A stretch of DNA of 64,000 nt, from positions 93,135-157,134 of the IMG/VR virus record IMGVR_UViG_3300030099_006646. One strand, written 5' to 3'. Positions within the stretch are counted from its first letter, which is position 1. Every line of letters begins with the position of its first letter. Below the pieces are notes generated by a model that made no database searches, had not been told where the DNA came from, and was given only the letters and a program-made list of their open reading frames with translations. Below, piece after piece: positions 25,143 to 60,264 of this stretch. Both the position numbers and the translations under genes were made by a program. The stretch comes from a virus.

Positions 25143-25469
25143 ATGAAAATCACAAAATCTAGACTTAAAGAAATCATTAAAGAAGAAGTTGAGAAAGTTC
25201 TCAAAGAAGGCTTGGAAGATTCTGAAGCAGGCTCTCGCCACTACCAGAATGTAAAAAGAAAAGAACGCATACTTAAAAAAGCTATTAAAGATGGGTTGAC
25301 TTTTGATCAAGTCCAAGACAAATACACAGAGTTCTATGATTTAGATCCAGAATACTATAAACATTTAAAAACAGAGAAGCCAGACGAAGCGCTTGAAGAA
25401 GAAGTAGACGAGACAATGGACTCGGGATACTTACCAGAACCTAAAAATAAAAAAGATGAAGATAAGTAA
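25143..25469 (+). CDS. Leader-tagged (class A) protein, 108 aa
   Basis: ATG 25143 with SD AAAGGAAG is preferred over an upstream in-frame codon at 25086. The first 23 residues (MKITKSRLKEIIKEEVEKVL, then KEG) are the class A leader shared with genes at 25456, 27584, 32668 and 47404. The body is short, charged and helical, with a Glu-rich C-terminus. The last 14 nt overlap the next tagged gene. A virion-packaged role is inferred from the leader; the function of the body is unknown. Confidence 0.7.
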   Translation: MKITKSRLKEIIKEEVEKVLKEGLEDSEAGSRHYQNVKRKERILKKAIKDGLTFDQVQDKYTEFYDLDPEYYKHLKTEKPDEALEEEVDETMDSGYLPEPKNKKDEDK

Positions 25470-26697
25470 AGAACATCTAAACAAGATTATCACCGAAGAA
25501 GTCCAAAGAGCTTTATCAGAGATTACTGATGATGAGCTTGATCGCCTTCTTGCTATGGGACGCGAAAAGCAAAGCCCCAAAGAGAAAATAACTCAGGTTA
25601 TTGGTGACAATCCCGAAGAAGCAACCGATGCTATGTTTAACATTCTGGGTGCCGATGGGATTAAAGATATTATGATTGCCTTGGCTCACGCTTCTGGTGA
25701 CGAAGAACTATTAAACTACACCAAAACAATGAACGAGCAGGAAGGTGTTGAGAATAAAGGTGATAAATCTTTTACTTTAAAATTGCCGAAGTTTAGAATT
25801 TCTGAAGAATGGGGAAGACCCGGCTCTGATGATAGAAAGATTATTGAAATGTTCACCTCTAAGATTAAAGGGGGCACTTTGGCAGAAAAAATAAGCTCTT
25901 TGAATAGCTTTGTAGCCGAGTGTGACGCAGCTTGCGCTTCTACAAAAGACGTAGCAGAAATTTTAGCTAATTTGGTTTTTCTAGATTCTTTAGCCACTGT
26001 GGTTTATGATTTTAACCCTATGACCGGGGGGTTTCTTTTTGAATCTCTAATGGCTGCTTTGCTTGGTGGAGATGCGAAACAAATTGACACCAAAGGAGGC
26101 ATCGACCAAGATGTTACAGATATTATGGACCACAATGGTCGCCCCATGAGCCTAAAATTTTTCTTTGAAACCGGCTCTCAATACATTAAAGCCTCGTATA
26201 ACAACCTTTTGGCTAGCATAGAAAGACACAAGCAGCCTATGATTTACTTGATAGGTATAAAAAACAGAGAGTTTGAAACTGGTAAAGTTTTAGCTATTGA
26301 TTTTTATGAGTTTTCTGTTGGGAATGGGGAAGACATCCCAGGAGACTACAGCGCGAGTGATTTAGGATCTGATAATGGCTTGCCGACAAGCTGGATTATT
26401 GGGGGAAAAAGAAGAGGACGTGCTCCAAAAGGGCAGGAAAACGTACCAAATGTTAGAATGAAAAAAACCAACTATTATCTAGGGACTCTTAATTTTGGCA
26501 ACAGAGATGAAATGGTTCAAATTGCTCAAAATTATGTAACACGTCTCGGGTCTGTATTGGTAGAAATTTACCAACAAATAGACGCTTTGTCTAATAACGT
26601 AAACGAGTATTTCCTTGGCGCACCCGATGCTAAAGGTTCCGCATTGGCAGCGCAACAAAATGCCCTTACCTTAAAGGCAGACACCGAAGCACTATAA
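25456..26697 (+). CDS. Leader-tagged (class A) protein with possible PD-(D/E)XK nuclease fold, 413 aa
   Basis: The N-terminus MKISKEHLNKIITEEVQRAL is the class A leader, with a possible cleavage-type motif LSE at 20-22. The central part has FE (195-196) on a helix, then GIDQDVTDI with Asp 222 and SLK at 232-234. This is a Glu...Asp...xLK layout like restriction-endonuclease folds, although Ser replaces the usual Glu of E-x-K. A similar but canonical arrangement occurs in the tagged gene at 32668. It may be a packaged nuclease or an inactive relative. No hydrophobic segments are seen. Confidence 0.6.
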   Translation: MKISKEHLNKIITEEVQRALSEITDDELDRLLAMGREKQSPKEKITQVIGDNPEEATDAMFNILGADGIKDIMIALAHASGDEELLNYTKTMNEQEGVENKGDKSFTLKLPKFRISEEWGRPGSDDRKIIEMFTSKIKGGTLAEKISSLNSFVAECDAACASTKDVAEILANLVFLDSLATVVYDFNPMTGGFLFESLMAALLGGDAKQIDTKGGIDQDVTDIMDHNGRPMSLKFFFETGSQYIKASYNNLLASIERHKQPMIYLIGIKNREFETGKVLAIDFYEFSVGNGEDIPGDYSASDLGSDNGLPTSWIIGGKRRGRAPKGQENVPNVRMKKTNYYLGTLNFGNRDEMVQIAQNYVTRLGSVLVEIYQQIDALSNNVNEYFLGAPDAKGSALAAQQNALTLKADTEAL

Positions 26698-26707
26698 AAG
26701 GAATAAA

Positions 26708-27556
26708 ATGAACCTTGTAGGAAACACGCCTCTTGTAAAGTTGGGCGATAAACTTTACGCTAAGTTCGAAGCATACAACCCATCCGGCTCTATCAAAGAC
26801 AGGATGGCTGCTTACATTCTCCAAAAAGCCGAAGAGAACGGCGATTTAAGAGAAGGCTATACTATTGTAGAAGCTTCATCAGGAAACACAGGTATAGCCT
26901 TTGCTATGCTCGCAGCAGCCAAAGGATACGGCTGTATTATTGTTATGCCTCGTAACATGAGTGAAGAGCGCAAGCAAATGATGCGCTCCTTCGGTGCTCG
27001 TATTATTGAAGTAGGCGACAATGCTTTTAAAGATGCGATTGAGCAGAGAGATCAACTAGTCCACAACTTTGGAACTTATTGGTCTCCACGGCAGTTTAGC
27101 AATATTCATAACATTGAATGTCACGAGAAAACCACAGCAGCAGAAATCGCACAAGCCGTTTTGGATATGCCCGCCCGTCTTTCTGCCCTTGTATCAGGAG
27201 CAGGCACAGGCGGAACTATTATGGGCTGTCAGCGAAGATTGAGCAAGCTATGGAGTGATGCCCGCTTTCTGCTTACAACGCCCTTAGAGGACGCAGCAAG
27301 CCACGGCATACAAGGCATTAACGATGGCGCAGACTTTTTGGTTGATAAAACTCTTATTGATGAAGAACTTGTTGTTTCCACACAAGAAGCAAAAGAAAGA
27401 GCTTGTCGTTTAGCAAAAGAAAATGGCTTGCTTGTAGGCATTAGTTCTGGTGCCAATGTGCTCGCAGCAGAGCGATGGATAGAAAAAAATAACCCCACCG
27501 GAGTGGTGGTAACCTTTCTTTGTGACAGAGGAGAAAGGTATTTGAGTTGTATGTAA
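26708..27556 (+). CDS. Cysteine synthase (O-acetylserine sulfhydrylase)
   Basis: This 282-residue PLP enzyme makes cysteine from O-acetylserine and sulfide. Family marks are present: GNTPLVKL near the N-terminus, PLP lysine 30 in NPSGSIKDR, SSGNTG for substrate binding, the phosphate loop GAGTGGT and a C-terminal GISSGAN. It is slightly shorter than bacterial CysK/CysM (about 300-320). It lies between two leader-tagged genes but has no leader itself. In a phage it may sustain cysteine supply or alter sulfur flow; that is inference. Confidence 0.88.
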   Translation: MNLVGNTPLVKLGDKLYAKFEAYNPSGSIKDRMAAYILQKAEENGDLREGYTIVEASSGNTGIAFAMLAAAKGYGCIIVMPRNMSEERKQMMRSFGARIIEVGDNAFKDAIEQRDQLVHNFGTYWSPRQFSNIHNIECHEKTTAAEIAQAVLDMPARLSALVSGAGTGGTIMGCQRRLSKLWSDARFLLTTPLEDAASHGIQGINDGADFLVDKTLIDEELVVSTQEAKERACRLAKENGLLVGISSGANVLAAERWIEKNNPTGVVVTFLCDRGERYLSCM

Positions 27557-27566
27557 CTATTTAATA
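27556..27566 (+). promoter_or_regulatory. Candidate late element ACTATTTAATA
   Basis: The 11-nt element follows the cysteine synthase stop and lies 17 nt before the start of a leader-tagged gene, which has its own SD (CGGAG). Confidence 0.45.
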
Positions 27567-27583
27567 AAGACGGAGATTTAAAA

Positions 27584-28021
27584 ATGAAACTTAACGAACT
27601 ACGAAACTTAATAAAAGAAGTTATCAAAGAACAGCAAGAGTCTGATTTCAGTAATCACCCAAATAGAAGCGTTGCTTCATATTTTAGAGCAATGCTTAGG
27701 CAACCACCGTCTAGGCACCAAAATCTAGCTGATTTGTACGACATCATGATTAGCGCTCCCGACAGCGCCCTAGACCGAGCAGAAGAGATGGGCTTTACTC
27801 GTGGCTTAGTTAAATTCCATCTAAGAGGATTAAAGGACGCTTCTGGCTTACCGGCTGGACAAGAGTTGTTTGCCGCAGCACAAGCAGCAGCACAAGCCCG
27901 AAGAGACGCAGAGGAAAAAGCCCGCGCAGAGCGAGAAGCAAATCCACCGCCGCCAAAAGATATGGCAGACCTAGTTTACCCAAGAGATTCTCGTGGAAAG
28001 ATCATCGGTCGTGCTGATTAA
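27584..28021 (+). CDS. Leader-tagged (class A) protein, 145 aa
   Basis: The N-terminus MKLNELRNLIKEVIKEQQE is a class A leader variant. The middle is helical, and residues about 100-125 form an Ala/Glu/Arg-rich helix (AAAQAAAQARRDAEEKARAE), then PPPPKD and a short C-terminal segment. The body is not recognised. It has the candidate late element upstream, consistent with a virion protein. Confidence 0.65.
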   Translation: MKLNELRNLIKEVIKEQQESDFSNHPNRSVASYFRAMLRQPPSRHQNLADLYDIMISAPDSALDRAEEMGFTRGLVKFHLRGLKDASGLPAGQELFAAAQAAAQARRDAEEKARAEREANPPPPKDMADLVYPRDSRGKIIGRAD

Positions 28022-28036
28022 AAAGGAAACCATCTC

Positions 28037-28126
28037 ATGAGCCTATTGGCAGGATTAGGAATGTTCGTTGTTATGAGCCTCTTCATCCTGCTTGTTTTGG
28101 TTGATGATGAAAAGAAAGAGAAATAA
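28037..28126 (+). CDS. Tiny membrane protein, 29 aa
   Basis: ATG 28037 starts a frame of one hydrophobic helix (residues 3-23: MSLLAGLG through ILLVLV) with a charged DDEKKEK end. AAAGGAAA lies about 12 nt upstream. It may be a small membrane peptide. No family is recognised, and chance cannot be excluded at this size. Confidence 0.4.
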   Translation: MSLLAGLGMFVVMSLFILLVLVDDEKKEK

Positions 28127-28136
28127 ATCTTTTACC

Positions 28137-28164
28137 TTGAAAACACTCTAATCACGCTTATAAT
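28137..28164 (+). promoter_or_regulatory. Sigma70-like promoter for dnaE
   Basis: TTGAAA at 28137-28142, 16-nt spacer, TATAAT at 28159-28164 (ACGCT-TATAAT context). Leader of about 18 nt with AAAGGAG. Confidence 0.85.
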
Positions 28165-28187
28165 ATAGGCATTAAAAGGAGTATATT

Positions 28188-31100
28188 ATGAGTAGGAAGA
28201 CGCCTTCCATTCCGTTCGTCAATTTGCACGGACATTCAACGTTTAGCATCAATGATGGCTTTGGGTTCCCACAAGAACACATGGACTTTGCTTACAACAA
28301 CGGCTGCGATGCCTTGGCTCTTACTGACCACGGTCACGCCAATGGTATGAGTTACCAACTTCTTCACGCAAAGAAGATGAAAGCAGAAGGCAAAGACTTC
28401 AAGCCAATCTTTGGCGTTGAAGCATACTTCCTGCCATCTATTGAAGACTGGCTTGCAGAAGTTGAAGAACTCAAAGAAGACAAGAAAGCTGCCAGAAAGC
28501 TAAAGAAGCACACTGGCACTATGGAGTCTGAAGATGAAGGCGAAACAAAAGACAGCAAACGTGTGCGTAACCGCAGACGTCATTTAATTCTTCTTGCTCA
28601 AAGTCAAAAAGGATTGAGCAACATATTTAAACTTATTTCGGAAAGTTTCACAAACGACAACTTTTATCGCTTTCCGAGAATCGACTACAAACTATTGGAG
28701 AAATACAATGAAGGGGTTATGGCTTCGTCTGCTTGCCTTGGTGGTGTTTACGCAGGTGACTATTGGGCTAATCGTGACAGCGGCAGCGATGCTGTTTTAG
28801 ATGCTATGCGCCGAACAACAACCAAGATGCAATCCATCTTTGGTGATCGTTGGTTCGGTGAGGTGCAGTGGAACAACATTCCAGAACAGCATGAACTAAA
28901 CAAATACATTCTACAAATCAAAGACGAGTTTAATCTTAAAGTTATTTCCACAGCAGACAGTCATTACCCGACTGACACTGCTTGGAAAGATAGAGAACTA
29001 TACAAGCGTCTTGGTTTTCTTAATCGTCCAACAAAGCCTGAATGGCTTTCGGACCATCTACCAGAAGACATCGAAGAAATTGGTTACGAGCTTTATCCAA
29101 AGAACGGCGACCAAATGTTCGAGGCTTACAAGAAGTATTCTGCTGAATGCGGTGTAGAGTACGACGATGAAGAAGTAAAAGAAACTATCTCTTATACTTA
29201 TCACATCGCACATGAAGTTATTGAAGACTTTATGCCGGATGATTCAATCAAGCTTCCTGACTTTGTTATTCCAGATGGAATGGAAGCAGAGACGGTTCTA
29301 GAAGAATACGCTCTTCTAGCTTTAAAAGAGAAAGAACTTCACCTAGATAAAGAATACTCTGACCGATTGAAGCATGAGCTTGAGGTAATCAACGGTCAGG
29401 GCTTTGCTAAATACTTTCTTACAATGAAGGCTATTGCTGATAAAGCAAACGAAGGTTGGCTTACAGGTCTAGGTCGAGGCTCTGCTGCTTCGTCTCTTGT
29501 GTCTTATGTCTTGGGCATTACGCAGATTGACCCTATCAAGTACAATCTAATCTTCTCGCGCTTTATGTCTGAGAACCAAGCACAGATTGGTATGCCTGAT
29601 ATTGATTACGATGTAAGTGATCGTATGGCTCTTACAGAAAAACTAATTGAAGATTGGGGTGAGACATCTGTTGTCCCTATCTCTAACTATAATACCCTGC
29701 AACTTCGCTCTCTAATCAAAGATATCTCCAAGTTTTATGAGATTCCTTTCATAGAAGTAAATAAAGTTACAGGTGCTATGATTAATGAAGCTATGCCCCA
29801 CGCCAAAGCAAAGCACGGCATTAAAGCAGGCGTCTATAATCCTACCTTTGAAGAAGTAAAAGAGTTCTCTTCAAGCCTTCAGGCGTTCTTTCGTAAGTAT
29901 CCTCATGTTGCTACGCACGTCGATGGTATCTACGGCTCTATTCGCGCTGTATCCCGTCACGCTGGTGGTGTTGTGATTGGTCAAGAGCTAGACAAGCACA
30001 TGCCACTTATCTCTTCTGGTGGAGTGCGACAAACTCCCTGGTCAGAAGGAATGAATGTTCGTCACTTGGAGCCACTAGGCTTTATTAAGTTTGACTTGCT
30101 TGGTCTTTCTACGCTGGCTATGATGGAGAATGCTATTAAAGCAATCTTAAAGCGTCATCACAATGTAGAGAACCCAACATTCAAAGACATTAAAAAGTAT
30201 TACGACAAAACTCTTCACCCAGATGTTATTGACTTTGATGACCAGAAGGTGTACAAGAATGTATTCCACAAAGGTAAGTTTGTAGGTACATTCCAGTTTA
30301 CACAAGCAGGCGTCCAAAACTTCTGCAAACGAGCCAAGCCTACTTGTCTTGATGACCTTTCGGCTATTACATCTATCTATCGTCCAGGTCCTCTCAGCGC
30401 CAAAGTAGATAGGCTATACACCAAAGCCAAGAATAACAAAGATAGTGTAAATTATCTTCACCCTCTTATCGAAGAAGAGACGAGAGAGACATTCGGCTTT
30501 GTTCTTTACCAGGAGCAGATTGCTACAATCACTCACAAGATTGGTAAAAACATTACGCTTGACGAAGGAAACATTATTCGTAAGCTCTTAACCAAGCGAG
30601 GAACAGGTAAAGAAAAACAACTTAAAAAGTTCCACGACAGGTTTATCCAAGGAGCTTTGGAAAAGAAGATTGATAAAACTACAGCACAGGAAATCTGGCA
30701 GACCCTAGAAAACTTCGCTAAGTATGGGTTCAACAAAGCTCACTCAACTTCTTATGCTGCTATTTCTTATCAGTGTGCTTGGCTCTACACTTACTATCCA
30801 GCAGAGTGGATGGCTGCTTTCTTGGACAAAGAGCCCGAGGCAAGAAAAGAAAAAGCAATCAATATTGCAAAATCTTTCGGTTTTAACATTCGAGGGCTTG
30901 ATGTAAATCTTTCAGGAATTGAATGGGAGATTGACCCTGACGATGATAAAACTCTTATCCAGCCGCTTAACTCTCTTAAAGGACTAGGAGATAAAGCTAT
31001 TGAGCAGATTCTCAATCATCGACCTTTTAGTTCAGTTGAAGATTTAATCTTTAACGAAGAGATTGTATATTCTAAACTTAACAAAAAGGCTCTAAATGTT

Positions 31101-31643: not shown

Positions 31644-31645
31644 TA

Positions 31646-31876: not shown

Positions 31877-32671
31877 ATGAAATCACCTTTAAGATATCCA
31901 GGCGGTAAATCAAGAGGCGCTAAATACATCACAACCTTTGTTCCAAACGATGCAGAAGAGTTCTGCTCTCCTTTTATCGGAGGAGGCTCAGTAGAGTTGA
32001 TGATTGCAGCCAGAGGCACAAAGGTTTATGGTTATGATATATTCCAGCCTTTGACTTGCTTCTGGAAACATCTTCTTAAGTCCCCTATGGCTCTTGCCAC
32101 GCTCTCTGATACATATCGCACTCCGCTTGATGGAAACAGAGGACTCACAAGGCAAGACTTTCTGCGATTTAAGAAAGATCTTTGTGAAGAGCCTGCGACT
32201 ACTTTGACACACGCAGCAAAATTCTATGCACTCAATCGCAGTTCATTCTCAGGCGCTACACTTTCAGGCGGCTACTCAAAGCAAGCAGCCTATAAGCGCT
32301 TCACAACTAGCTCTATTGAGCGCGTAAGGAAGTTTCAAGAGCCTAACCTAGAGGTGGATTGCCTAGACTTTAAAGAGTCCATATCTAAGCATCCTGATGC
32401 GTTCTTGTATTGTGACCCTCCCTACATGCTAGAGAAGAACAACAATCTTTATGGAAAGAATGGCGATACCCACTCAGGCTTTGACCACGAAGGACTATTT
32501 AATCTATTGAATAAAAGAAAAGGATGGTTATTATCTTATAATAATACTCCTGAAATCAGAGAGATGTATAAGGATTACGAAATCTTTGATGCACACTGGG
32601 CTTATGGCATGAAAAATGTTTCAACAAAAACGATGGGTTCCAGTTCTGAAATACTAATTATAGGGCAATGA
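31877..32671 (+). CDS. Dam-type N6-adenine DNA methyltransferase (D12 class), first copy
   Basis: This 264-residue enzyme has SAM-binding motif I at LRYPGGKSRGAKY near the N-terminus, an FCSPFIGGGSVELM segment and catalytic motif IV DPPY in LYCDPPYML (about residue 177). These define D12-class methylases such as Dam, which methylate adenine, often in GATC. It may protect phage DNA from host nucleases. A second, more distant member lies at 57017. No cognate restriction gene is adjacent, although the next gene has a nuclease-like fold. Confidence 0.9.
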   Translation: MKSPLRYPGGKSRGAKYITTFVPNDAEEFCSPFIGGGSVELMIAARGTKVYGYDIFQPLTCFWKHLLKSPMALATLSDTYRTPLDGNRGLTRQDFLRFKKDLCEEPATTLTHAAKFYALNRSSFSGATLSGGYSKQAAYKRFTTSSIERVRKFQEPNLEVDCLDFKESISKHPDAFLYCDPPYMLEKNNNLYGKNGDTHSGFDHEGLFNLLNKRKGWLLSYNNTPEIREMYKDYEIFDAHWAYGMKNVSTKTMGSSSEILIIGQ

Positions 32672-33795
32672 ACATGAACAAAGATCTTAGAAAGCTTGTA
32701 GTATCTGTAGTGAAAGAGGAAGTAGAAAACTTCAAGGTTCCTCCTGAGATGAAAAAGAGCCTAGATGGTCCTATGCCCAGCCCGCAAGATAGTGAAGAAA
32801 GAAATCTTCAGAAAGCGATTAGGGCTATTGAAGCAGAGGGGTACGATTACGAGATTCGCGGAAAAAACACCATTATTATTAGGGATGATGATAGAATAGA
32901 GACTCTTGAGAAAATGAAATCTATGCTCATTCCGCAAGGTTTCAGGCACAACCCAATTGGAGGTGGCAGTAGCATTGGACGCCTTGAGGTTAAAGATAAA
33001 ACCCTTGGAAACGTTTATATCCTAATTAAGCCAAAATCGCGCAGAGCAGCAGCTACGGCTGGTATGGATTTCGAAGATAAGATGGCGCAACTTATAAATG
33101 ACAAATATGCAACGATGGGAGTAAAAGCATCAACAGCCGGGTTTGGACCCGGATCAGACCTCACTATAAAGACTCCCACAAAAACGATTACCGCAGAACT
33201 TAAGACAGCTTTGTCTGCCGATTTCGGTCAGTTTAGAGCACAATATAATCAAGAATCTGAATCATGGGAGCCTAGAAGAACATCTGGATTTGTGAAGAAT
33301 GAGAGTATATTTACTCCTTTGTTTGAGCAGTATTTGAGAAATTGGCTTAATGTAAACGCAACGTTCCGCAATCCCGCAGACTCTAGACTAAGAAAAGACG
33401 GGCTTAAAATAACAGGTCTTGCCCGTTCAGAGGGCACTGGCGAACTAAAAAGACAACTTCAGAACGATTGGTTTAGTGGCAAGACAGATTACAAAGTCCC
33501 TTTTCCATTCCAAATGATTGCCTCTTATTATGCTGATAAAGGCGATGAGTATATACAAATCAACGGTCGAGGATTGTACGCGCTTACACCCGAAGCTTCA
33601 AAAAAGCTAGGTGTTCCTATGTTTAAGGATCTTGGCTTGATATCTTACCTAAGATTTAGATTTAAACCAAGCCAGGGAGTTAATAGCGCTACTTCTTTTA
33701 CTGTAGCGGTAAAACTTAAAGGAAGGTATAAAGATTCTAATTTAAGCCTAACAAACGCTGAAGATTTGGATATAATAATAAACAAACTTCTATAG
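32668..33795 (+). CDS. Leader-tagged (class A-like) PD-(D/E)XK nuclease-like protein, 375 aa
   Basis: The start overlaps the Dam stop (ATGA-like). The N-terminus NKDLRKLVVSVVKEEVENF is a diverged class A leader. Residues about 45-120 form a small alpha/beta module. Then FE (135-136), GPGSDLTI with Asp 164 and ITAELK with Glu 177 and Lys 179 give the canonical restriction-fold active site E...D...ExK. The rest is helical and unassigned. Coupled to a methylase, it could be its nuclease partner, or a packaged nuclease used on entry. Confidence 0.62.
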   Translation: MNMNKDLRKLVVSVVKEEVENFKVPPEMKKSLDGPMPSPQDSEERNLQKAIRAIEAEGYDYEIRGKNTIIIRDDDRIETLEKMKSMLIPQGFRHNPIGGGSSIGRLEVKDKTLGNVYILIKPKSRRAAATAGMDFEDKMAQLINDKYATMGVKASTAGFGPGSDLTIKTPTKTITAELKTALSADFGQFRAQYNQESESWEPRRTSGFVKNESIFTPLFEQYLRNWLNVNATFRNPADSRLRKDGLKITGLARSEGTGELKRQLQNDWFSGKTDYKVPFPFQMIASYYADKGDEYIQINGRGLYALTPEASKKLGVPMFKDLGLISYLRFRFKPSQGVNSATSFTVAVKLKGRYKDSNLSLTNAEDLDIIINKLL

Positions 33796-33802: not shown

Positions 33803-35257
33803 ATGAAAAATTTATGTCGTGCGGATTTAATCCGCGAAGCTTTATTGCGTGGCGAGAACAGCGCCACCCTAACTAACGATGGTGCACTGGTAGTCAACAC
33901 TACCCCCCACACTGGACGTTCACCAGAAGCAAAGTTTATTGTCGAGGACGATATAACAAAAGACTTGGTAGATTGGAAAAACAACCAAAAAATGACCAAG
34001 CAAAATTTTGAGATCTTTAAAAAAGAATATAAAATCCCTAATGATCTCTTTGTTCAAGAAGTATATGCAGGAGCAGACCCATCGCACCGTTTAAAGGTTC
34101 GCGTTCACACAAAGAACGCTTGGCACTCGGTCTTTGCACGAAACATGTTCTTTCTTCCTACAGAAGAGGAACTCCAAGGTTTCGAACCAGACTTTAATCT
34201 TTACTACATTCCCGGAAACACAACAGACCCACGAGTCATTATCTCTATGGAAGATAAGGAAATATATATCTCGGGAACTTCTTATGCTGGAGAGATGAAG
34301 AAAAGCGTCTTTTCGGTGCTTAACTTCTTATTACCCCAAAAGGGTATACTGCCCATGCATTGCTCCGTAAATGTCACCAGAACTTCCATGAGTTCTACAG
34401 TGTTCTTTGGATTATCAGGGACCGGTAAGACAACCCTTTCTGCCGACATAGATAACTGGCTTGTGGGAGACGACGAACACGGCTGGTCTGATGAAGGAGT
34501 TTTTAATTTTGAGGGCGGCTGCTACGCAAAGACAATCAACTTATCCCAAGAAGACGAACCCCTCATTCATCGCGCCTGCCACAAATTTGGGACTGTGCTT
34601 GAAAATGTAGTTACAAAAGACGGCACACCTGACTTTGAGGATTCTTCTATTGCTCAAAACAGCCGCGCTTCTTATCCGCTAGAGTTTGTAAAGAACACTT
34701 GGATGAACGCTAAAAGTGACCATCCTAAGAATGTTATTATGCTTACTTGTGATGCATATGGTATTTTACCTCCCGTCGCTCGCCTTAACACTCTAAATGC
34801 TGTAGAGCAATTCCTTTTAGGATATACAGCCAAGGTAGCAGGAACTGAGAAAGGAGTTAAAGAGCCTGAAGCGACCTTCTCGCACTGTTTTGGAGCACCC
34901 TTTATGCCCTTGAAGCCAAGGGTATACGCAAACCTCCTCAAAGAAAAAGTAAAAAAACACGATGTAACCTGCTGGCTTGTAAATACAGGTTGGACAGGAG
35001 GTCCTTACGGAGAAGGTAAAAGAATGCCTATCGCCTTAACCAGAAGGATTGTTCAATCTATTCAGAATGGATGGATGAAGGAATATAACTTTGAGAAGCA
35101 TATTTATACTGATTTAGATATACCAACGGACTGCAAATGGATTCCCGAGGAGATATTAAAGCCAGAAATGGGATGGAAAGATAAGAAAAAATATGTTGCG
35201 GAAGCTAATAAGTTAATGAGTATGTTTATTAAACGTTTAAAAGACGGGATGTTTTAA
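33803..35257 (+). CDS. pckA: Phosphoenolpyruvate carboxykinase (ATP type)
   Basis: This 484-residue enzyme interconverts oxaloacetate plus ATP and PEP plus CO2. All key parts are visible: TGRSP (Arg 39), SYAGEMKKSVFS (Tyr 161, Lys 166/167), MHCSVNV (His 186), the kinase loop GLSGTGKTTLS (203-213), the metal pair in GDDEHGW (223-224) and FNFEGGCYAK. A C-terminal NTGWTGGPYGEGKRM adenine-side loop is present. It is about 55 residues shorter than E. coli PckA, mainly at the N-terminus, but keeps the catalytic set. GGTGG is a weak SD. It sits between a tagged nuclease-like gene and small zinc-ribbon and dUTPase genes, with phage-like base composition and no mobile element nearby. Confidence 0.93.
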   Translation: MKNLCRADLIREALLRGENSATLTNDGALVVNTTPHTGRSPEAKFIVEDDITKDLVDWKNNQKMTKQNFEIFKKEYKIPNDLFVQEVYAGADPSHRLKVRVHTKNAWHSVFARNMFFLPTEEELQGFEPDFNLYYIPGNTTDPRVIISMEDKEIYISGTSYAGEMKKSVFSVLNFLLPQKGILPMHCSVNVTRTSMSSTVFFGLSGTGKTTLSADIDNWLVGDDEHGWSDEGVFNFEGGCYAKTINLSQEDEPLIHRACHKFGTVLENVVTKDGTPDFEDSSIAQNSRASYPLEFVKNTWMNAKSDHPKNVIMLTCDAYGILPPVARLNTLNAVEQFLLGYTAKVAGTEKGVKEPEATFSHCFGAPFMPLKPRVYANLLKEKVKKHDVTCWLVNTGWTGGPYGEGKRMPIALTRRIVQSIQNGWMKEYNFEKHIYTDLDIPTDCKWIPEEILKPEMGWKDKKKYVAEANKLMSMFIKRLKDGMF

Positions 35258-38894: not shown

Positions 38895-39605
38895 ATGAGC
38901 GACAAGAAAATGCTAAACGAAGCAGCTATTCGCAAGATGATGAAGCTTGCAAATATCCCTGCTCTTACAGACAAATTTATTAAAGAAAACTATTTCGAGT
39001 ATAATGAAGAAATGGCTTACCAGCGCGATGACGAAGAGCCAGAGATGCCAATGGATGATGCTCCAGTGGATGAACCAGAAATGGATCTCGATGCTGAAGT
39101 AGACATTGAAGAGCCTGCTGGAGAGGAACTTCCCGCTGCTGAAGAACTCGTACAAGACCTTATGGGTGTCCTTGAAAAGCATTTTGACGAAGTAGAGTTC
39201 AATGTTGACGTCGAAGGTGAAGACGACGAACCGGCTATGGATATGGATGCCGAGCCAGAAATGGATCTCGAAGAGCCTGCGCCTGAAGAGCCTATGGACG
39301 ACGCCCCTATGGGTGACGAACCTTCTGCTATGGACGATGAAGAAGAAGAACCTATGATGGAAACTGACCTTGAGGAAGGCGATAGTCAAGCAGCAACAGA
39401 CTTACCCTACACTCAATCATCTGACGAAGAAGGCGCTGCTGCTGAAGTTGCCGCTGACGAAGCTTTCATGGAAGAAGAAACACTCGGAGAAGAGGAAGAA
39501 TTAGAAGAGATGGAAGATGCTGACGCTCACAGCAAGCTCATCGACGCTATTGCAGCCAAGGTTGCTGAACGTCTTCTTGCCGAGGCAAAGAAAACAAACG
39601 AATAA
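38895..39605 (+). CDS. Very acidic 236-aa protein, possible scaffold or internal virion protein
   Basis: ATG 38895 with SD AAGGAG is the true start; an open extension upstream overlaps the sigma-like gene. The N-terminus (MLNEAAIRKMMKLANIPALT) recalls short phage leader helices. Residues about 35-215 are extremely acidic, with repeats of EPEMDLD/EPAPEEPMDD type, and the C-terminus is a helix (LIDAIAAKVAERLLAEAKK). Such acidic bodies with terminal helices occur in head core or scaffold proteins; the role is inferred. Confidence 0.6.
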   Translation: MSDKKMLNEAAIRKMMKLANIPALTDKFIKENYFEYNEEMAYQRDDEEPEMPMDDAPVDEPEMDLDAEVDIEEPAGEELPAAEELVQDLMGVLEKHFDEVEFNVDVEGEDDEPAMDMDAEPEMDLEEPAPEEPMDDAPMGDEPSAMDDEEEEPMMETDLEEGDSQAATDLPYTQSSDEEGAAAEVAADEAFMEEETLGEEEELEEMEDADAHSKLIDAIAAKVAERLLAEAKKTNE

Positions 39606-46396: not shown

Positions 46397-46398
46397 AA

Positions 46399-46408
46399 AC
46401 TATTTATA
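46399..46408 (+). promoter_or_regulatory. Candidate late element ACTATTTATA, 3 nt before ATG
   Basis: ACTATTTATATAG leads straight into ATG 46412 with no Shine-Dalgarno. The 37-nt block 46399-46435 is repeated at 59106-59142 with three mismatches. Confidence 0.5.
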
Positions 46409-46435
46409 TAGATGAAACAACTTCTTGAAAACTGG
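46399..46435 (+). repeat. Late element plus class B leader cassette, copy 1
   Basis: 37 nt covering the ACTATTTATA element, the ATG and eight leader codons, matching 59106-59142 at 34 of 37 positions although the two genes are otherwise unrelated. Confidence 0.75.
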
Positions 46436-47407
46436 AATAAATTTGTTGTAGAGCGAAAAGAAATGCCTTGCCCTGCTCCAACACAAGATCTTAAACTAAA
46501 CACAAAGAACCGTGATGCTGCAATACACGCAGAGCACATTCAATACGGACCACTTAATGTTGATGAACCAGGGGACTACTGGAAAGACATAGCAGAGTAT
46601 TGGAATACAACAGAAGAAGCCGCACAGAAATCCCTTTGTGGAAACTGCGTAGCCTTTGACATTTCTCCAAGAATGGATGAGTGCATGCCAGGTGAAGTTT
46701 CAGATAAAGACGGACGCCTTGGTTACTGCTGGATGCATCACTTTAAATGTCACTCTGCTCGCTCTTGTAGAACTTGGGCGAAAGGTGGACCTATCACTGA
46801 GGACAAAGTATCTTACGATTGGCAAGAGAGGAGTCAAAGTAGCGTGGAAGAAGAGAAAAAGAAGAAAGACGATCGTTGCACTCGCATCGCAAAAAGAAAG
46901 TATGATGTTTGGCCATCTGCTTATGCTTCCGGCGCTGTCGTAAAGTGCCGCCAAGGTAAAATTTGGAAAGGCGTCAAAGAAGACATCGAAAAGATTGTCC
47001 GCGAAGAAGTAGAAGCATTCCTCGCAGAAAGCGGCAAGTGCCAGAAAGGTTACAAGACACATCCTACTCAGAAGACAAAAGAAATGTATGGGAAGACATA
47101 CAGAAACTGCATTAAAGCAGAGGAAAGAGAACTCACCGAAGAAGAACTAGAAGAAAAGAAGACCGACTACTCAAAAGAAAAAGAGTCAGGTCTCCACGGA
47201 TGGTTCTCGCGCCAAGGAGGCAAAGGCAAGTCGAAAGGGTGGGTTGACTGCAACACTTGTCGCAAAGACAAGAAAACAGGGAAAAAGACTTGCAAATCTT
47301 GCGGAAGAAAAGAAGGTGAGAAGAGAGCAAAGTATCCTTCCTGCCGACCAACACCATCAGCCTGCGGAACAAAAGGCAAAGGAAAAAAATGGGGCAAAAA
47401 GAAATGA
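46412..47407 (+). CDS. Leader-tagged (class B) basic multi-module protein, 331 aa
   Basis: The leader MKQLLENWNKFVVERKE is class B. Residues about 70-125 form a Cys-rich module (CGNCVAFDIS, CWMHHFKCHSARSC) that looks metal-binding. Residues about 150-185 carry a CTRIAKRKYDVWPSAYASG module. Then comes an internal class A-like helix (EDIEKIVREEVEAFLAES, about 191-208). The C-terminus is a Lys-rich CNTC...CKSCGR...YPSCRPTPSAC module. The whole is strongly basic. A packaged DNA-binding role is inferred. The next tagged gene overlaps by 4 nt. Confidence 0.68.
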   Translation: MKQLLENWNKFVVERKEMPCPAPTQDLKLNTKNRDAAIHAEHIQYGPLNVDEPGDYWKDIAEYWNTTEEAAQKSLCGNCVAFDISPRMDECMPGEVSDKDGRLGYCWMHHFKCHSARSCRTWAKGGPITEDKVSYDWQERSQSSVEEEKKKKDDRCTRIAKRKYDVWPSAYASGAVVKCRQGKIWKGVKEDIEKIVREEVEAFLAESGKCQKGYKTHPTQKTKEMYGKTYRNCIKAEERELTEEELEEKKTDYSKEKESGLHGWFSRQGGKGKSKGWVDCNTCRKDKKTGKKTCKSCGRKEGEKRAKYPSCRPTPSACGTKGKGKKWGKKK

Positions 47408-47991
47408 AAATCACAAAAGAAAAACTAATGGAGATCATTAAAGAAGAAGTCGAGAGCACTCTTCAAGAAGACGGACACGAAGACGTCCCCTCCGCCGTCA
47501 GAGCAATGAAAACAATTATTGAAGACGCAGGTCAAATACTCCAAGCCCTTGAAGGAATGGATGGAACTCTTCCAACTTGGTGGACAAATAAAATGGCTGT
47601 TGCATCCTCCAAAATGAATTCTATGAGAGATTATCTTTTGGTTGATTCAGAAGAAGCCCTAGAAGAAGAATACAATCACATTACTGAAGCAACTTATGAC
47701 GATGGAACCATCGTAGAAGATGTAGAGTTCTGGGATGATGTGCTTGAAGAGGCAGAATACCAGGGTCGCAAAGTTACTCTGAACAAGCCCACAAGAGGCG
47801 ATGTAAAGAAGTTCAAGGTATATGTCAAAGACCCAAAGACAGGAAACGTTAAGAAGGTGAACTTTGGAGATCCTAACATGAGGATTAAAAAGTCTAACCC
47901 TAAGCGCCGTAAGTCCTTCAGGGCTCGTCACAACTGCGATAACCCTGGACCAAAGACAAAAGCACGCTATTGGTCCTGTAAAAAGTGGTAA
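47404..47991 (+). CDS. Leader-tagged (class A) protein with basic Cys/Trp C-terminal module, 195 aa
   Basis: ATG 47404 overlaps the previous stop (ATGA). The leader MKITKEKLMEIIKEEVESTL ends in a possible LQE processing motif. The middle is acidic. The C-terminal 75 residues (from YQGRKVTLNKPTRGDVKKF through KVNFGDPNM, RRKSFRARHNC and KARYWSCKKW) form a compact basic module that I recall as widespread in phage and giant-virus proteins. Probably nucleic-acid binding and packaged; inferred. Confidence 0.68.
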   Translation: MKITKEKLMEIIKEEVESTLQEDGHEDVPSAVRAMKTIIEDAGQILQALEGMDGTLPTWWTNKMAVASSKMNSMRDYLLVDSEEALEEEYNHITEATYDDGTIVEDVEFWDDVLEEAEYQGRKVTLNKPTRGDVKKFKVYVKDPKTGNVKKVNFGDPNMRIKKSNPKRRKSFRARHNCDNPGPKTKARYWSCKKW

Positions 47992-52589: not shown

Positions 52590-53042
52590 ATGAAAGAAAA
52601 AAGACAAGTAATCGCACTTTCAGGAGGCTTCGATCCTCCAAGAAAAGATCACGTCGCAATGATTTTAGACGCATCTCAAATAGGAGATGTTGTAATAATT
52701 CTCAACAGCGACGATTGGTGTTCTCGCCACAGGTGGAACAATAAAGTATTTGCTAAATACGAAAACAGAGCATCAGTTCTTAGTAAAATCCCTGGCGTTG
52801 TAAAAGTAGTGCCAGCCGATGATACTGATGACACTGTTTGCAAAACCCTAGCAGAACTCAAGCCAGATTTCTTTGGAAACGGCGGCAGCAGGGACATGAC
52901 CAACACTCCAGAAGTCCAGCTTTGCAAGGAGCTTGGCATTGGAATGATGTGGTATCTTGGAGATACTAAAGACGAAAAGGTTTTACAGAAAGCTGATAGC
53001 TATTTAAAGATAGCAATTGAAGAAACTTATAATGCGCGGTAG
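52590..53042 (+). CDS. Cytidylyltransferase-like nucleotidyltransferase
   Basis: This 150-residue protein has the HIGH-superfamily layout: IALSGGFDPPRKDHVAMI (GGFD...DH in place of GxFDxxHxGH), VVIILNSDDW, and FFGNGGSRDMTNTPE near the ISSTxxR position. It may transfer nucleotides to a phosphate or alcohol substrate (as in TagD, RfaE or NadD); the true substrate is unknown. Its C-terminal Ala-Arg-stop is encoded by the 5' end of tRNA-Asn. Confidence 0.75.
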   Translation: MKEKRQVIALSGGFDPPRKDHVAMILDASQIGDVVIILNSDDWCSRHRWNNKVFAKYENRASVLSKIPGVVKVVPADDTDDTVCKTLAELKPDFFGNGGSRDMTNTPEVQLCKELGIGMMWYLGDTKDEKVLQKADSYLKIAIEETYNAR

Positions 53043-53577: not shown

Positions 53578-53580
53578 GCC

Positions 53581-53778: not shown

Positions 53779-53863
53779 GCCAAAGTGGTGGAATTGGTAT
53801 ACACAACAGACTTAAAATCTGTCGCTCCTTGTGGGCTTGCGGGTTCGAGTCCCGCCTTTGGTA
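53779..53863 (+). tRNA. tRNA-Leu (anticodon TAA)
   Basis: 85 nt with a variable arm. Acceptor GCCAAAG/CTTTGGT, D arm GTGG...ATTGGTATAC, anticodon loop CTTAAAA, variable arm near 53822-53840, T arm GGTTCGAGTCC. Discriminator A. It reads UUA, common in AT-rich genes. Confidence 0.92.
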
Positions 53864-53877
53864 CTTAGACAAAACAT

Positions 53878-53964
53878 AGAAGCGTGACCGAGTGGCTTAA
53901 GGAGCACGATTGGAAATCGTGTGTAGGTGAGAATCTACCGAGGGTTCGAATCCCTCCGCTTCTG
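53878..53964 (+). tRNA. tRNA-Ser (anticodon GGA)
   Basis: 87 nt with a long variable arm. Acceptor AGAAGCG/CGCTTCT, anticodon stem CACGAT/ATCGTG around TTGGAAA, variable arm GTAGGTGAGAATCTAC, T arm GGTTCGAATCC, discriminator G as usual for Ser. Confidence 0.92.
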
Positions 53965-53994
53965 TTCTTATTTTGTCCTTCTTCAGTAAAATAA

Positions 53995-54004
53995 ACTATT
54001 TATT
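53995..54004 (+). promoter_or_regulatory. Candidate late element ACTATTTATT, 2 nt before ATG
   Basis: It precedes the 139-aa structural-type gene with no Shine-Dalgarno, the same close spacing as at 17565, 46399 and 59106. Confidence 0.45.
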
Positions 54005-54006
54005 AT

Positions 54007-54426
54007 ATGTCTATTTTTGAGAAGTATGATGTAGGGTTACATAATGTAGGTTCTTATCAGGTATCAGGTCGCCCTTTTGTTACAAGTTCGGCGATCCCAG
54101 CATCCGGCGCTCAACCGAACTATTGGAAGGTTGAGTTTCCTATGGTTACAAAAGAAATAACCATAGCAAATAATAGTAACCAAACAAATAAAGATATTAG
54201 GATTGCTTTCTCTGAAAATGGATTAAATGATACAGTTAGAAACTATTTTTTAAAGCATCCGGCAAAAGATGGTGTTGGTCCTACGACATTTAATGTTAAA
54301 GCAACAGAGATATACATTATGAGTGACGATTCCCACGAGCCAGAAGTATCTGTTTATGCCGCTTTAACAAGCATTCCTACCGCCCGTATCCCTGATAATT
54401 GGTCCGGCGAAGATGGAGTAGGATAA
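54007..54426 (+). CDS. Probable virion structural protein, 139 aa
   Basis: MSIFEKYDVGLHNVGSYQVS and WKVEFPMVTKEITIANNS suggest an all-beta protein of the kind found in phage head decoration or fibre-associated proteins. It lacks Cys and hydrophobic helices. It is preceded at close range by the candidate late element. Structural role is inferred from sequence style and promoter class. Confidence 0.55.
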   Translation: MSIFEKYDVGLHNVGSYQVSGRPFVTSSAIPASGAQPNYWKVEFPMVTKEITIANNSNQTNKDIRIAFSENGLNDTVRNYFLKHPAKDGVGPTTFNVKATEIYIMSDDSHEPEVSVYAALTSIPTARIPDNWSGEDGVG

Positions 54427-54443
54427 AAGATACTACTTATATT

Positions 54444-55751: not shown

Positions 55752-55770
55752 AAAAAGTTTATTTTTTTCC

Positions 55771-55798
55771 TTGAAAGCCAGATTTTCAGGCTTATAGT
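55771..55798 (+). promoter_or_regulatory. Sigma70-like promoter (TATAGT class) for ParB-like gene
   Basis: TTGAAA at 55771-55776, 16-nt spacer, TATAGT at 55793-55798 in GGCT context. Leader of about 70 nt. Confidence 0.75.
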
Positions 55799-55871
55799 AA
55801 TAATGTAAGAAGTCACATAACCAAGAAGAGTTCGACTTCATTATGCTTATTAAATACAATAGGAGAAAACA

Positions 55872-56906
55872 ATGAGTAAATATATTATGTCAAAAGGTGA
55901 GCAACTAAATTATGCTCAGGTTAGTAAAGAGATTAGGGAGAAGTGGCCAGTAAGAAACATGCCGCCAATGAACGCACTGGACTATGTGTCAGTTCTTGAA
56001 GATGTTTCTGTTGATATTCCTTCCCTTGTGAATCGACCAACTGAAAAATCAGCTATTGAAAAAATTATTGCTTCAAAGGATGGTTTCGATGGGGCTGTCT
56101 GGGACCCTCCCAGGGTTGCGAGGATCAAGAGCACGGGAAAAATGTATCTTTTCGACGGAGATCATAGAAGGGCTCTATGGAAAGTGTTTTTCCCAAATGA
56201 AAAAACAATGCCAATGCGAGTTGTTGAAGTAGATTCAATAGAAGATATTCATGCAAATTTTGTCCAGGTTAATCACTCTGGAAAAAACAAAATGACTGCT
56301 GAACAGATTTTTGTTCACGATTTTCTTTCGGGTGACGTAGAAGCAAAGCAGTATGAAAAAGACTTCAAATCTGCCGGTATTAAAATTTTCTGTAGCTGGG
56401 ATGCAAAAGGAACTGCTGGTGACTCTGACGGCGTATACATGAAGTATCATGGAGCTAAAAAGCTGATCTCTCTAGCTAAAAAGGCGAACAAGAAAGGTCT
56501 AAAGGGCAACCTTGCACAACAAACTATTGATCTTTTGAGACAAGTTTGTGATGAGAATGACGTCTCAGCTTGGCAATCTGATCCAGCCAAACCTCTCAAA
56601 GCAGAGCTTGCTGGCGGATTGTTGCTGGCGCTAGGAGCTTGGGCAAATGTATGCACTTCTCCTGAGTTTTCTAGGTGGCTTAAAAGCAAACTAGAATACA
56701 GCAGCGTTTCTCAACTCGCAGAAGATTTTAAATCTACAGGAGGTTCTATTGTAAATCATGCACAATACTCTATTTGCAAGGGTATTCAAAGTGAAATTAA
56801 CAAAGCCTATGACAGCGGGAAGTTTCCTACTATGGAGAAAAAGCTAAGTACGCAGAGGCTTCATCACTTTTACAAGAAGCCAACTCCAAGGCAAGGTAAA
56901 AAGTAA
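55872..56906 (+). CDS. ParB/sulfiredoxin-like domain protein, 344 aa
   Basis: Residues about 55-125 hold a ParB-like N-terminal domain: VWDPPRVARIKSTGKMYLFD then GDHRRALWKVFF (compare G-x-H-R of ParB-like NTPases/nucleases) and MPMRVVEVDS. The remainder is helical and not recognised. Such proteins in phages may act as CTPase clamps, nucleases or transcription modulators. It has its own promoter, SD AGGAG and a strong terminator, so it is a single-gene unit. Confidence 0.68.
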   Translation: MSKYIMSKGEQLNYAQVSKEIREKWPVRNMPPMNALDYVSVLEDVSVDIPSLVNRPTEKSAIEKIIASKDGFDGAVWDPPRVARIKSTGKMYLFDGDHRRALWKVFFPNEKTMPMRVVEVDSIEDIHANFVQVNHSGKNKMTAEQIFVHDFLSGDVEAKQYEKDFKSAGIKIFCSWDAKGTAGDSDGVYMKYHGAKKLISLAKKANKKGLKGNLAQQTIDLLRQVCDENDVSAWQSDPAKPLKAELAGGLLLALGAWANVCTSPEFSRWLKSKLEYSSVSQLAEDFKSTGGSIVNHAQYSICKGIQSEINKAYDSGKFPTMEKKLSTQRLHHFYKKPTPRQGKK

Positions 56907-56927
56907 CTTTTCTTAACCACTCTAGCA

Positions 56928-56957
56928 CCCCGCTTGGTCTTCCAAGCGGGGTTTTTT
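56928..56957 (+). terminator. Rho-independent terminator
   Basis: CCCCGCTTGG (56928-56937) pairs with CCAAGCGGGG (56942-56951), then TTTTTT. Very strong stem after the ParB-like gene. Confidence 0.95.
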
Positions 56958-56966
56958 ACTTTGAAC

Positions 56967-56995
56967 TTGAATCTATTTCTTACTGTGTTTATAAT
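56967..56995 (+). promoter_or_regulatory. Sigma70-like promoter for second Dam gene
   Basis: TTGAAT at 56967-56972, 17-nt spacer, TATAAT at 56990-56995. Confidence 0.7.
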
Positions 56996-57016
56996 AAATG
57001 GAAGGAGGTAAATAAT

Positions 57017-58045
57017 TTGAAACCTATATTCATGTGGGCAGGAGGCAAAACTAAAATGCTTGAAAAGTATGAGCCTTACTTGCCCAAGTCTTTTAAAGGA
57101 TACTGTGAACCTTTTCTTGGTGGAGGAGCAATGTTCATCTGGGCTTACAAAACAAGCCCAAACGCCAAGTTTATTTTAAACGATGTCAATGAGCCTATTA
57201 TGAACATTTACAGAGCAATTAAGAATGACAATGACAAGTTCTGCTCTGTCCTTGATACGCTATCAGGCGAGTACCTTCCTTTAGATCCGCCTCCCAAGCC
57301 CTTAAAGAAAGGCGCGACACAAGAAGAGAAAGAAGCTCTCGCAAAGATAAAGAAAGAAACCAAAGAGTTCGAGAAGCAACACAAGAATGGTGTTGAGAAT
57401 GATTGGCGCAGGCTATACGAACTTAACCCAACCAGACGGAGCTTCTATTTTAAAACAAGAATAGATTATCAGTATCACTTCGATAAATTCAACTCTACCG
57501 AAGAGGCTGCGACCCTGTACTTCTTAATGAAGACGGGGTTTAATGGCATTTGGCAATTGAAAGGTCGCGCTAACGAAGATAAGGCGCTAGGGAGGTTCAA
57601 CACTCCTTGTGGTCTTATGAACCAAACTGCCAAAGTCTACGACAAAGAGAATGTCTTAGAGTGGCACAAAGCCTTGCAAAATGCAACCCTTCTTACAGGG
57701 GACTTTAAAGACACGATAAGGCATATTAAAGAAGGGTTTTATGTATTCATGGACCCTCCTTACCGTGGGTCTTTTGCAGACTATGGTACTCAATCAGACG
57801 ATCAGTTTCAAGATAGCGTTGTGAAATTTGCCCATCAGTGCAGAGACAAAGGAGCCTTGACCCTTCTGTCTAATCGAGAGATGGATGATGGTTTCTTTGA
57901 GGAAAGAGCAGATGGTGATACGATTGTTAAGTTCGATGTAACTTATACAGCAGGTCGCAGAAAAGCTAATGTTGATGAGAATGGCAATGAAATCTTCACA
58001 GCTACAAAAGCAGAAGAAATTTTAATGATTGGTAAAAAGACTTGA
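57017..58045 (+). CDS. Dam-type N6-adenine DNA methyltransferase, second copy (TTG start)
   Basis: This 342-residue D12-class methylase has FMWAGGKTKMLEKY (motif I), YCEPFLGGGAMF, and DPPY in VFMDPPYRGSFADYG (about residue 253). An insertion at residues 85-130 (Lys-rich, PPPKPLKKG) makes it longer than the copy at 31877. TTG 57017 is set by a near-perfect SD (GGAAGGAGGT) 8 nt upstream. The two copies are too different to be a recent duplication and may have different target sites. Confidence 0.88.
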   Translation: MKPIFMWAGGKTKMLEKYEPYLPKSFKGYCEPFLGGGAMFIWAYKTSPNAKFILNDVNEPIMNIYRAIKNDNDKFCSVLDTLSGEYLPLDPPPKPLKKGATQEEKEALAKIKKETKEFEKQHKNGVENDWRRLYELNPTRRSFYFKTRIDYQYHFDKFNSTEEAATLYFLMKTGFNGIWQLKGRANEDKALGRFNTPCGLMNQTAKVYDKENVLEWHKALQNATLLTGDFKDTIRHIKEGFYVFMDPPYRGSFADYGTQSDDQFQDSVVKFAHQCRDKGALTLLSNREMDDGFFEERADGDTIVKFDVTYTAGRRKANVDENGNEIFTATKAEEILMIGKKT

Positions 58046-58069
58046 ATCTATCAATAAGGTTACTATAGT
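58042..58069 (+). promoter_or_regulatory. Sigma70-like promoter giving a leaderless transcript (uvdE)
   Basis: TTGAAT at 58042-58047, 16-nt spacer, TATAGT at 58064-58069, ATG at 58076, 6 nt after the box. Confidence 0.75.
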
Positions 58070-58075
58070 TAAGAC

Positions 58076-59091
<1,016 letters not shown>

Positions 59092-59105
59092 AACACAAAT
59101 TAGAT

Positions 59106-59115
59106 ACTATTTATA
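59106..59115 (+). promoter_or_regulatory. Candidate late element ACTATTTATA, 3 nt before ATG
   Basis: Identical element and spacing to 46399-46408; no Shine-Dalgarno before ATG 59119. Confidence 0.5.
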
Positions 59116-59142
59116 TAGATGAAACTCCTACTTGAAAACTGG
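59106..59142 (+). repeat. Late element plus class B leader cassette, copy 2
   Basis: 37 nt matching 46399-46435 with three mismatches; covers the element, the ATG and eight leader codons. Confidence 0.75.
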
Positions 59143-60264
59143 CGAAGGTTCTTAAAAGAAGAGGACAGAGACACTTACGACGACGAAGTAGTAAAAAGAA
59201 ATAAAGCTACATTCACAAGCAACTCGCTCGCTGAAGAAGACGAAGTAGAAGAAGGAATAGGCGCTTTTGTTCCCGGTTCTTCTGAATACAAGATGAACAA
59301 GGCAGTAAGACAGCTAAAGAAAGAGCTAGCAGATGAAAAACACAAGACCACCTGGGAAAGAATAGCTCAGGAGTTAAAAGAAACGCAAGAGGCTTGGCGA
59401 CTACTTAAGAAATGGAAAACTCTAGGCGATTTTGAAAAAGAATTTGTATGGGATCAAATCAAAGACGTTGCCAAGGCTACAACTCTAGGTGCAGTGCTTG
59501 CTGCTCCGCTTGGTGCGGCTGTATGGATGCCATTGGTAATGCCTTTTTTAAAGAAGCATGGTCTTGTAGCTTCTTCTTTTATGAATGAAGAAGAGACATC
59601 CTGTCCAGATAGTCTTGTAGTCTTTATGGCAGGCGGTCCAGGTTCAGGCAAGTCCTCGGTCATTAGCGGACTAGGACTAGACAACTTTGTAGTTCTTAAC
59701 CCTGACGATGACTTTGAAAGCGAGCTTGCTTCGCTAGGCATCAGCGCAAATATGCAGGGAATGTCAGACAGGCGGAAAGAACTTAAAGCACAACTTGAAG
59801 TCGAGCCTAATCCCGAAGCACAAGCCGAGGTGGACAAGATTACAGCCGACTTCTCTGCTGCTATGAAAGCATTCAGCAGCGCCAACAGAAAGCACGAGGA
59901 TGAAGTTGAAAGACTAATCAACAGTGAAGAGTGTAACAGTTTCGTTGTGGATGGAACTGGTGCTACATTCAGCAGAATGGAAAACAGAGTAGAACGATTA
60001 AGAGAGAAAGGATACAAGGTTGCTATGGTCTTTGTTGATGTAGACCCTGCCGCAGCCGAAAAAAGAAACCTTGCTCGTTCATCCACAGGTGGCAGGTCTT
60101 TGCCCACCAAAGTAATAGCGAAGACACACGACAAAGTACAAGCCAACAAGGCGGCATATGCCAAAATGTTCGGTGATAACTTTATTTCTGTAGACAATAG
60201 TGGTTCAGAGGAACAGCTAAAAGGTGCTATGAAATCAGCTATTTCCAAACTTTCTTTAATTTAA
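59119..60264 (+). CDS. Leader-tagged (class B) P-loop kinase, zeta-toxin-like, 381 aa
   Basis: The leader MKLLLENWRRFLKEED is class B. A helical region (about 55-115) and a hydrophobic stretch (about 118-146, TTLGAVLAAPLGAAVWMPLV) follow. The kinase domain has Walker A GGPGSGKS at 172-179, then VVLNPDD, VVDGTGAT and VAMVFVDVDP..A..RN, the order seen in zeta-toxin and polynucleotide-kinase folds. Zeta toxins phosphorylate UDP-sugars; the substrate here is unknown. The leader suggests packaging in the virion and delivery at infection. Confidence 0.7.
   Translation: MKLLLENWRRFLKEEDRDTYDDEVVKRNKATFTSNSLAEEDEVEEGIGAFVPGSSEYKMNKAVRQLKKELADEKHKTTWERIAQELKETQEAWRLLKKWKTLGDFEKEFVWDQIKDVAKATTLGAVLAAPLGAAVWMPLVMPFLKKHGLVASSFMNEEETSCPDSLVVFMAGGPGSGKSSVISGLGLDNFVVLNPDDDFESELASLGISANMQGMSDRRKELKAQLEVEPNPEAQAEVDKITADFSAAMKAFSSANRKHEDEVERLINSEECNSFVVDGTGATFSRMENRVERLREKGYKVAMVFVDVDPAAAEKRNLARSSTGGRSLPTKVIAKTHDKVQANKAAYAKMFGDNFISVDNSGSEEQLKGAMKSAISKLSLI

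What the first reader, a model, noticed from the sequence alone, without database searches (positions are those of the whole stretch)
25143..60264. Shared N-terminal leaders on unrelated proteins: a candidate virion cargo-tagging system
At least seven genes start with one of two short amphipathic leaders. Class A (MK-I-x-K-x-x-L-x-x-I-I-K-E-E-V-x-x-x-L-x-E) is at 25143, 25456, 47404, with variants at 27584 and 32668 and an internal copy in 46412. Class B (MK-x-LLENW-x-x-F) is at 46412 and 59119. The bodies are unrelated: nuclease-like folds, a P-loop kinase, basic Cys-rich modules and unknowns. Several leaders end in L-x-E, the kind of site cut by T4 prohead protease in the capsid-targeting sequence of T4 internal proteins (MKTYQEFIAE...). 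The hypothesis is that these are capsid-targeting propeptides that load effector enzymes into the head for delivery with the DNA.
Basis: partly seen in the sequence, partly recalled or inferred. Interest (0 to 1): 0.9.

Follow-up and report, generated by a model that had tools for sequence, protein, structure and literature searches.

The report
Capsid-targeting leader tags on phage cargo
A marine T4-like virus of bacteria, and many of its relatives, put one of a few short, interchangeable start sequences on many otherwise unrelated proteins, and these look like postal tags that load the proteins into the virus head for delivery, so cargo could be predicted from sequence.

Summary
The observation largely holds. 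A fourth class A gene lies outside the window. 27584 is a weak variant; 32668 is not distinguishable from chance. Both leaders are widespread in IMG/VR T4-like viruses, up to 12 per genome, on hundreds of unrelated bodies.

Capsid-targeting propeptides are the best explanation (about 0.7). The genome has a T4-type prohead protease (S77, E=6e-32). Class B matches the functionally mapped positions of the T4 capsid targeting sequence, and its conservation stops after the predicted P1 Glu. Homologous bodies swap between A, B and T4-CTS-like leaders. Leader-bearing large records have gp21 whenever they have gp23 (19/19). In three cyanophages with published virion proteomes, 7 of 9 proteins with T4-CTS-like starts were found in particles, against 1.8 expected (p=2.5e-4).

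Packaging and cleavage of the class A/B proteins themselves are inferred, not shown. New variant of a known kind.

The parts
25143..25469 (+). class A leader gene, 108 aa; leader MKITKSRLKEIIKEEVEKVLKE = 25143-25208; acidic body of unknown function
   Evidence: PSSM 50.5 bits; near-identical homolog with the same leader in relative L047; no Pfam or PHROG hit
25456..26697 (+). class A leader gene, 413 aa; leader MKISKEHLNKIITEEVQRALSE = 25456-25521; body of no known family
   Evidence: PSSM 31.0 bits; homologous bodies in L381, L184 and L114 carry leader B instead
27584..28021 (+). weak class A-like start (MKLNELRNLIKEVIKEQQE), 145 aa protein
   Evidence: 2.9 bits at residue 1 with the softened matrix; late-promoter-like site upstream; similar starts in immuto phage
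27554..27566 (+). late-promoter-like motif TAACTATTTAATA upstream of 27584
   Evidence: motif scan
32668..33795 (+). claimed class A variant, 375 aa; leader not confirmed
   Evidence: not among the top matches of the leader matrices; phrog_26930 (unknown function) E=4e-7; late-promoter-like site upstream
32651..32663 (+). late-promoter-like motif ATACTAATTATAG upstream of 32668
   Evidence: motif scan
46397..46409 (+). late-promoter-like motif AAACTATTTATAT, 2 bases before the start codon of 46412
   Evidence: motif model from head and tail genes outside the window
46412..47407 (+). class B leader gene, 331 aa; leader MKQLLENWNKFVVE = 46412-46453; Cys-rich module, then a basic module (CTRIAKRKYDVWPSAYASGAVVKCR...)
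   Evidence: PSSM 39.4 bits; phrog_727; a cyanophage homolog of the basic module (S-SCSM1_29) is in the virion proteome
46970..47029 (+). internal class A-like segment GVKEDIEKIVREEVEAFLAE (aa 187-206), ending in L-A-E
   Evidence: 12.5 bits, second-best internal window of the genome; suggestive only
47404..47991 (+). class A leader gene, 195 aa; leader MKITKEKLMEIIKEEVESTLQE = 47404-47469; C-terminal basic domain ...RRKSFRARHNCDNPGPKTKARYWSCKKW
   Evidence: PSSM 43.8 bits; phrog_7595; homologs carry leader B (L141) or T4-CTS-like starts (L321; L395-L474)
59104..59116 (+). late-promoter-like motif ATACTATTTATAT, 2 bases before the start codon of 59119
59119..60264 (+). class B leader gene, 381 aa; leader MKLLLENWRRFLKE = 59119-59160; spacer domain, then P-loop kinase (Zeta toxin / AAA_33)
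   Evidence: PSSM 49.0 bits; Pfam Zeta_toxin E=5.8e-13; in L382 and L383 leader B is joined directly to a 96-97% identical kinase domain without the spacer

Best explanation
The leaders are N-terminal capsid-targeting propeptides of the T4 internal-protein kind. The leader binds the assembling prohead core, so whatever is fused behind it is enclosed in the prohead. The phage's gp21-type (S77) protease then cuts after the terminal Glu ([LIV]-x-E), the leader leaves, and the freed protein is packed with the DNA and injected into the host. Shown here: the leaders, their spread, their interchange on homologous bodies, the protease, the CTS-like residue pattern of B, and the link between CTS-like starts and virion presence in cyanophages. 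Inferred: binding to the core, cleavage, packaging and injection in this phage, and that A works like B.
For: (1) Protease: S77 at record 76557-77177, E=6e-32. (2) Register: T4 CTS targeting depends on residues 4 and 7 and processing on 8 and 10 (PMC9026906). Leader B aligns as W8 / F,Y11 / L,I,V12 / E14, the same spacing. W8 and F/Y11 were fixed by my search pattern, but L/I/V/M12 (92%) and E14 (80%) were not, and conservation falls from 2.5 bits at E14 to 0.3 two residues later. (3) Leader A: [LIVM]-x-E at residues 17-25 in 65%, against 18% in shuffles. (4) Swap: seven body families occur with both A and B; one of them also with a T4-CTS-like MKKFKQYIDE. 25456 body: A here, B in three relatives. 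47404 body: A, B or CTS-like starts; strict CTS-like 12/73 against 3/235 neighbouring ORFs, p=4e-6. (5) Of 25 leader-bearing records of 100 kb or more, 19 have S77 and Gp23 and the same six lack both; random contigs 4/47 have S77. (6) Virion proteomes: S-CREM2 5/5 CTS-like proteins detected, S-SCSM1 1/2, S-SZBM1 1/2; stratified p=2.5e-4. (7) Leader genes sit directly after gp21 in L245, L287 and L320. (8) Bodies resemble known virion cargo: S-AdoMet lyase, protein kinase, Zeta kinase, NUDIX.
Against: No mass spectrum of any class A or B protein. Leader A lacks the aromatic CTS positions and is not strongly amphipathic. 46412 has V-V-E and 65745 has no clean L-x-E. In S-SCSM1 and S-SZBM1 one short CTS-like protein (apparently orthologous in the two) was not detected. 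The late-promoter-like motif is not enriched upstream of leaders across relatives (A 4%, B 10%, other genes 7%). Co-occurrence with gp21 also follows from shared ancestry. The S-CREM2 test pattern was written after I had seen part of that genome.
Confidence: 0.7

Rival explanations
1. Leader B is a true capsid-targeting propeptide, but leader A is something else: a short helical docking or oligomerisation segment that attaches proteins to a virion or intracellular partner and is not removed.
For: A lacks the aromatic CTS positions, has lysines where B has W and F, and its conservation fades without a sharp edge. A proteins are short (median 110 aa against 198 for B).
Against: A and B swap on seven body families, A also tends to [LIVM]-x-E at residues 21-22, and A genes occur next to gp21.
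Confidence: 0.17
2. The leaders target proteins elsewhere during infection, for example to the host membrane or to a phage replication compartment, as amphipathic helices.
For: Leader B is amphipathic; the bodies include enzymes that could work in the cell.
Against: A is not especially amphipathic. No replication, nucleotide or chaperonin enzyme of this genome carries a leader. Conservation of B stops at a protease-type Glu. CTS-like starts track virion presence in cyanophages.
Confidence: 0.08
3. The shared starts are by-products of 5'-end recombination that copies promoter, ribosome site and first codons between genes, with no role for the peptide.
For: Some leader copies are nearly identical in DNA, e.g. 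ATGAAACTCCTACTTGAAAAYTGGCG in several genomes, and 46412 and 59119 share ACTATTTATATAGATGAAA.
Against: Other copies differ at the DNA level but keep the peptide (25456 against 25143). Upstream motifs are not shared across relatives. Peptide conservation ends at a defined Glu and is attached to unrelated bodies.
Confidence: 0.05

Closest known systems
T4 capsid targeting sequence (CTS) of internal proteins IPI-III, with gp21 processing (Mullaney and Black 1996; reviewed in PMC9026906)
   Same: short N-terminal peptide on unrelated bodies; aromatic-xx-aromatic-aliphatic-x-Glu in leader B; S77 prohead protease in the same genome
   Different: class A and B sequences are longer (14 and about 22 residues) and distinct; four A plus two B genes here and up to 12 A copies in one relative; bodies include kinases, NUDIX, GNAT and S-AdoMet lyase rather than small basic internal proteins; packaging not shown
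Virion-associated enzymes of T4-like cyanophages S-CREM2, S-SCSM1 and S-SZBM1 (PMC10665884, PMC9602691, PMC9146016)
   Same: SAM hydrolase, kinase and cytidylyltransferase detected in particles; I find that several begin with MKxFxxFLxE
   Different: they carry T4-CTS-like starts, not leaders A or B; the passages read in those papers do not mention a targeting peptide
P1 DarB capsid targeting by its N-terminal 30 residues (PMC9024508)
   Same: N-terminal segment sufficient to send a reporter to the capsid; defence-blocking cargo
   Different: unrelated phage and leader; no family of genes sharing one tag was described in the passages read
Propeptides of ejection proteins in giant phages phiKZ and SPN3US (PMC5694885)
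   Same: propeptides removed by a gp21-related protease after a Glu
   Different: different protease family (S80), long propeptides and fewer processed proteins

Membership tests
T4-type capsid targeting sequence | located at the extreme N-terminus of otherwise unrelated proteins | tested here: met
   PSSM matches at residue 1 in six genes; bodies without mutual similarity
T4-type capsid targeting sequence | targeting residues at positions 4 and 7 (aromatic in IPIII) and processing residues 8 and 10 (Ile, Glu) | tested here: inconclusive
   Leader B met in the same register (W8, F/Y11 fixed by the search; L/I/V/M12 92% and E14 80% independent; all four in 138/177). Leader A not met: aliphatic instead of aromatic, all-four analogue in 26%
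T4-type capsid targeting sequence | phage encodes a gp21-type (S77) prohead protease | tested here: met
   record 76557-77177, PF03420 E=6e-32; 19/19 large leader-bearing records that hold gp23
T4-type capsid targeting sequence | leader interchangeable with known CTS-like starts on one body | tested here: met
   47404 body: leader A, leader B, MKKFKQYIDE, MKNFKEYLSE, MKSFREYLAE
T4-type capsid targeting sequence | tagged protein present in the virion | not testable with these tools
   no proteome for this virus; only indirect support from cyanophages with CTS-like starts
T4-type capsid targeting sequence | leader removed after Glu during head maturation | not testable with these tools
   needs N-terminal peptides by mass spectrometry
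T4-type capsid targeting sequence | leader sufficient to package a reporter | not testable with these tools
   needs a fusion experiment

The most novel reading that the evidence does not exclude
Marine T4-like phages use at least two further families of capsid-targeting leader, besides the T4 CTS, as exchangeable tags. Any gene that acquires one is loaded into the head, giving each virus a fast-changing cargo of up to a dozen or more injected proteins that can be listed from sequence alone.
Probability: 0.5. Interest if true: 0.85.

Novelty: new variant of a known kind. Interest (0 to 1): 0.72.

Why it matters
If true, the injected cargo of a very common group of ocean viruses could be predicted by searching for two short N-terminal patterns, instead of needing a virion proteome for each isolate. 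It would extend the T4 internal-protein principle from a handful of anti-restriction proteins to kinases, NUDIX hydrolases, acetyltransferases, S-AdoMet lyases and many unknown proteins, and would supply new tags for packaging enzymes into phage heads. It would also explain why non-structural enzymes keep turning up in cyanophage virion proteomes.

Tried and rejected
tblastn of 23-residue leaders against the phage collection gave nothing, probably because of length and the low-complexity filter. Idea that leader B mimics the gp23 propeptide (ALLEKWERTGLLE, RLLENQAAQLLKE): those windows rank only 33rd and 46th of 48,212, not significant. Structure of 25456: AlphaFold with four sequences gave pLDDT 47, so no fold search was run and 'nuclease-like' stays unproven. 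PADLOC: no meaningful hit. Literature search for capsid targeting sequence with cyanophage or metagenome: one review and none.
Full report
What the window is. The window is positions 93,135-157,134 of a 158,608-base IMG/VR virus record. The record has the T4-type head order: large terminase (71243), portal (72821), S77 prohead protease (76557-77177, PF03420 E=6e-32), scaffold (83903) and gp23-like capsid protein (85085) (terminase, portal, scaffold and capsid named from sequence resemblance and gene order). No near relative is in the phage collection at the nucleotide level for the stretch tested; a relative of 185,507 bases is in IMG/VR (L047/L243/L383).

Noticed in passing
33803-35257: ATP-type phosphoenolpyruvate carboxykinase gene (PF01293, E=4e-181) in a phage; also IMP dehydrogenase (37095), adenylosuccinate synthetase (48522), a PALP-family enzyme (26708) and a GroEL-like chaperonin (41740).
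   Followed up: partly
L329 (Flavobacterium phage immuto) 18763-19311, 32588-33888, 40198-40425: A further shared start, M(E)xxFDLKKFLVENKLTxNSxxLxE, on three proteins, with a looser version on the gene right after gp21; possibly another leader class.
   Followed up: no
L384, L386, L390, L392: Distant kinases related to 59119 start with MISLLQILKE / MINLVNLKE, again ending in L-x-E or similar; another possible leader class.
   Followed up: no
46397-46409, 59104-59116, 53993-54005 and elsewhere in the record: Motif nACTATTTATA (15 plus-strand, 2 minus-strand copies of CTATTTAT) upstream of head and tail genes; looks like the late promoter of this group, differing from T4 TATAAATA.
   Followed up: partly
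54007-54426: Paralog (38% identity, E=5e-21) of a gene in the head cluster (record 77806-78279), under a strong late-promoter-like site.
   Followed up: partly
52590-53042: Cytidylyltransferase-like protein (PF01467) with a late-promoter-like site but no leader; related enzymes are found in cyanophage virions.
   Followed up: no
   Followed up: partly
L330/L331 (S-CREM2) gp12, gp15: Two more virion-detected proteins have near-CTS segments outside the strict pattern (gp12 ...LRFASFMAEA near residue 17, gp15 MNFSEFNESL).
   Followed up: no
38895-39605: Acidic Asp/Glu-rich protein starting MSDKKMLNEAAIRKMMKLANIPALTDKFIKE; resembles an immuto start MKKQILSEQFRRMQKLAGIITE.
   Followed up: no
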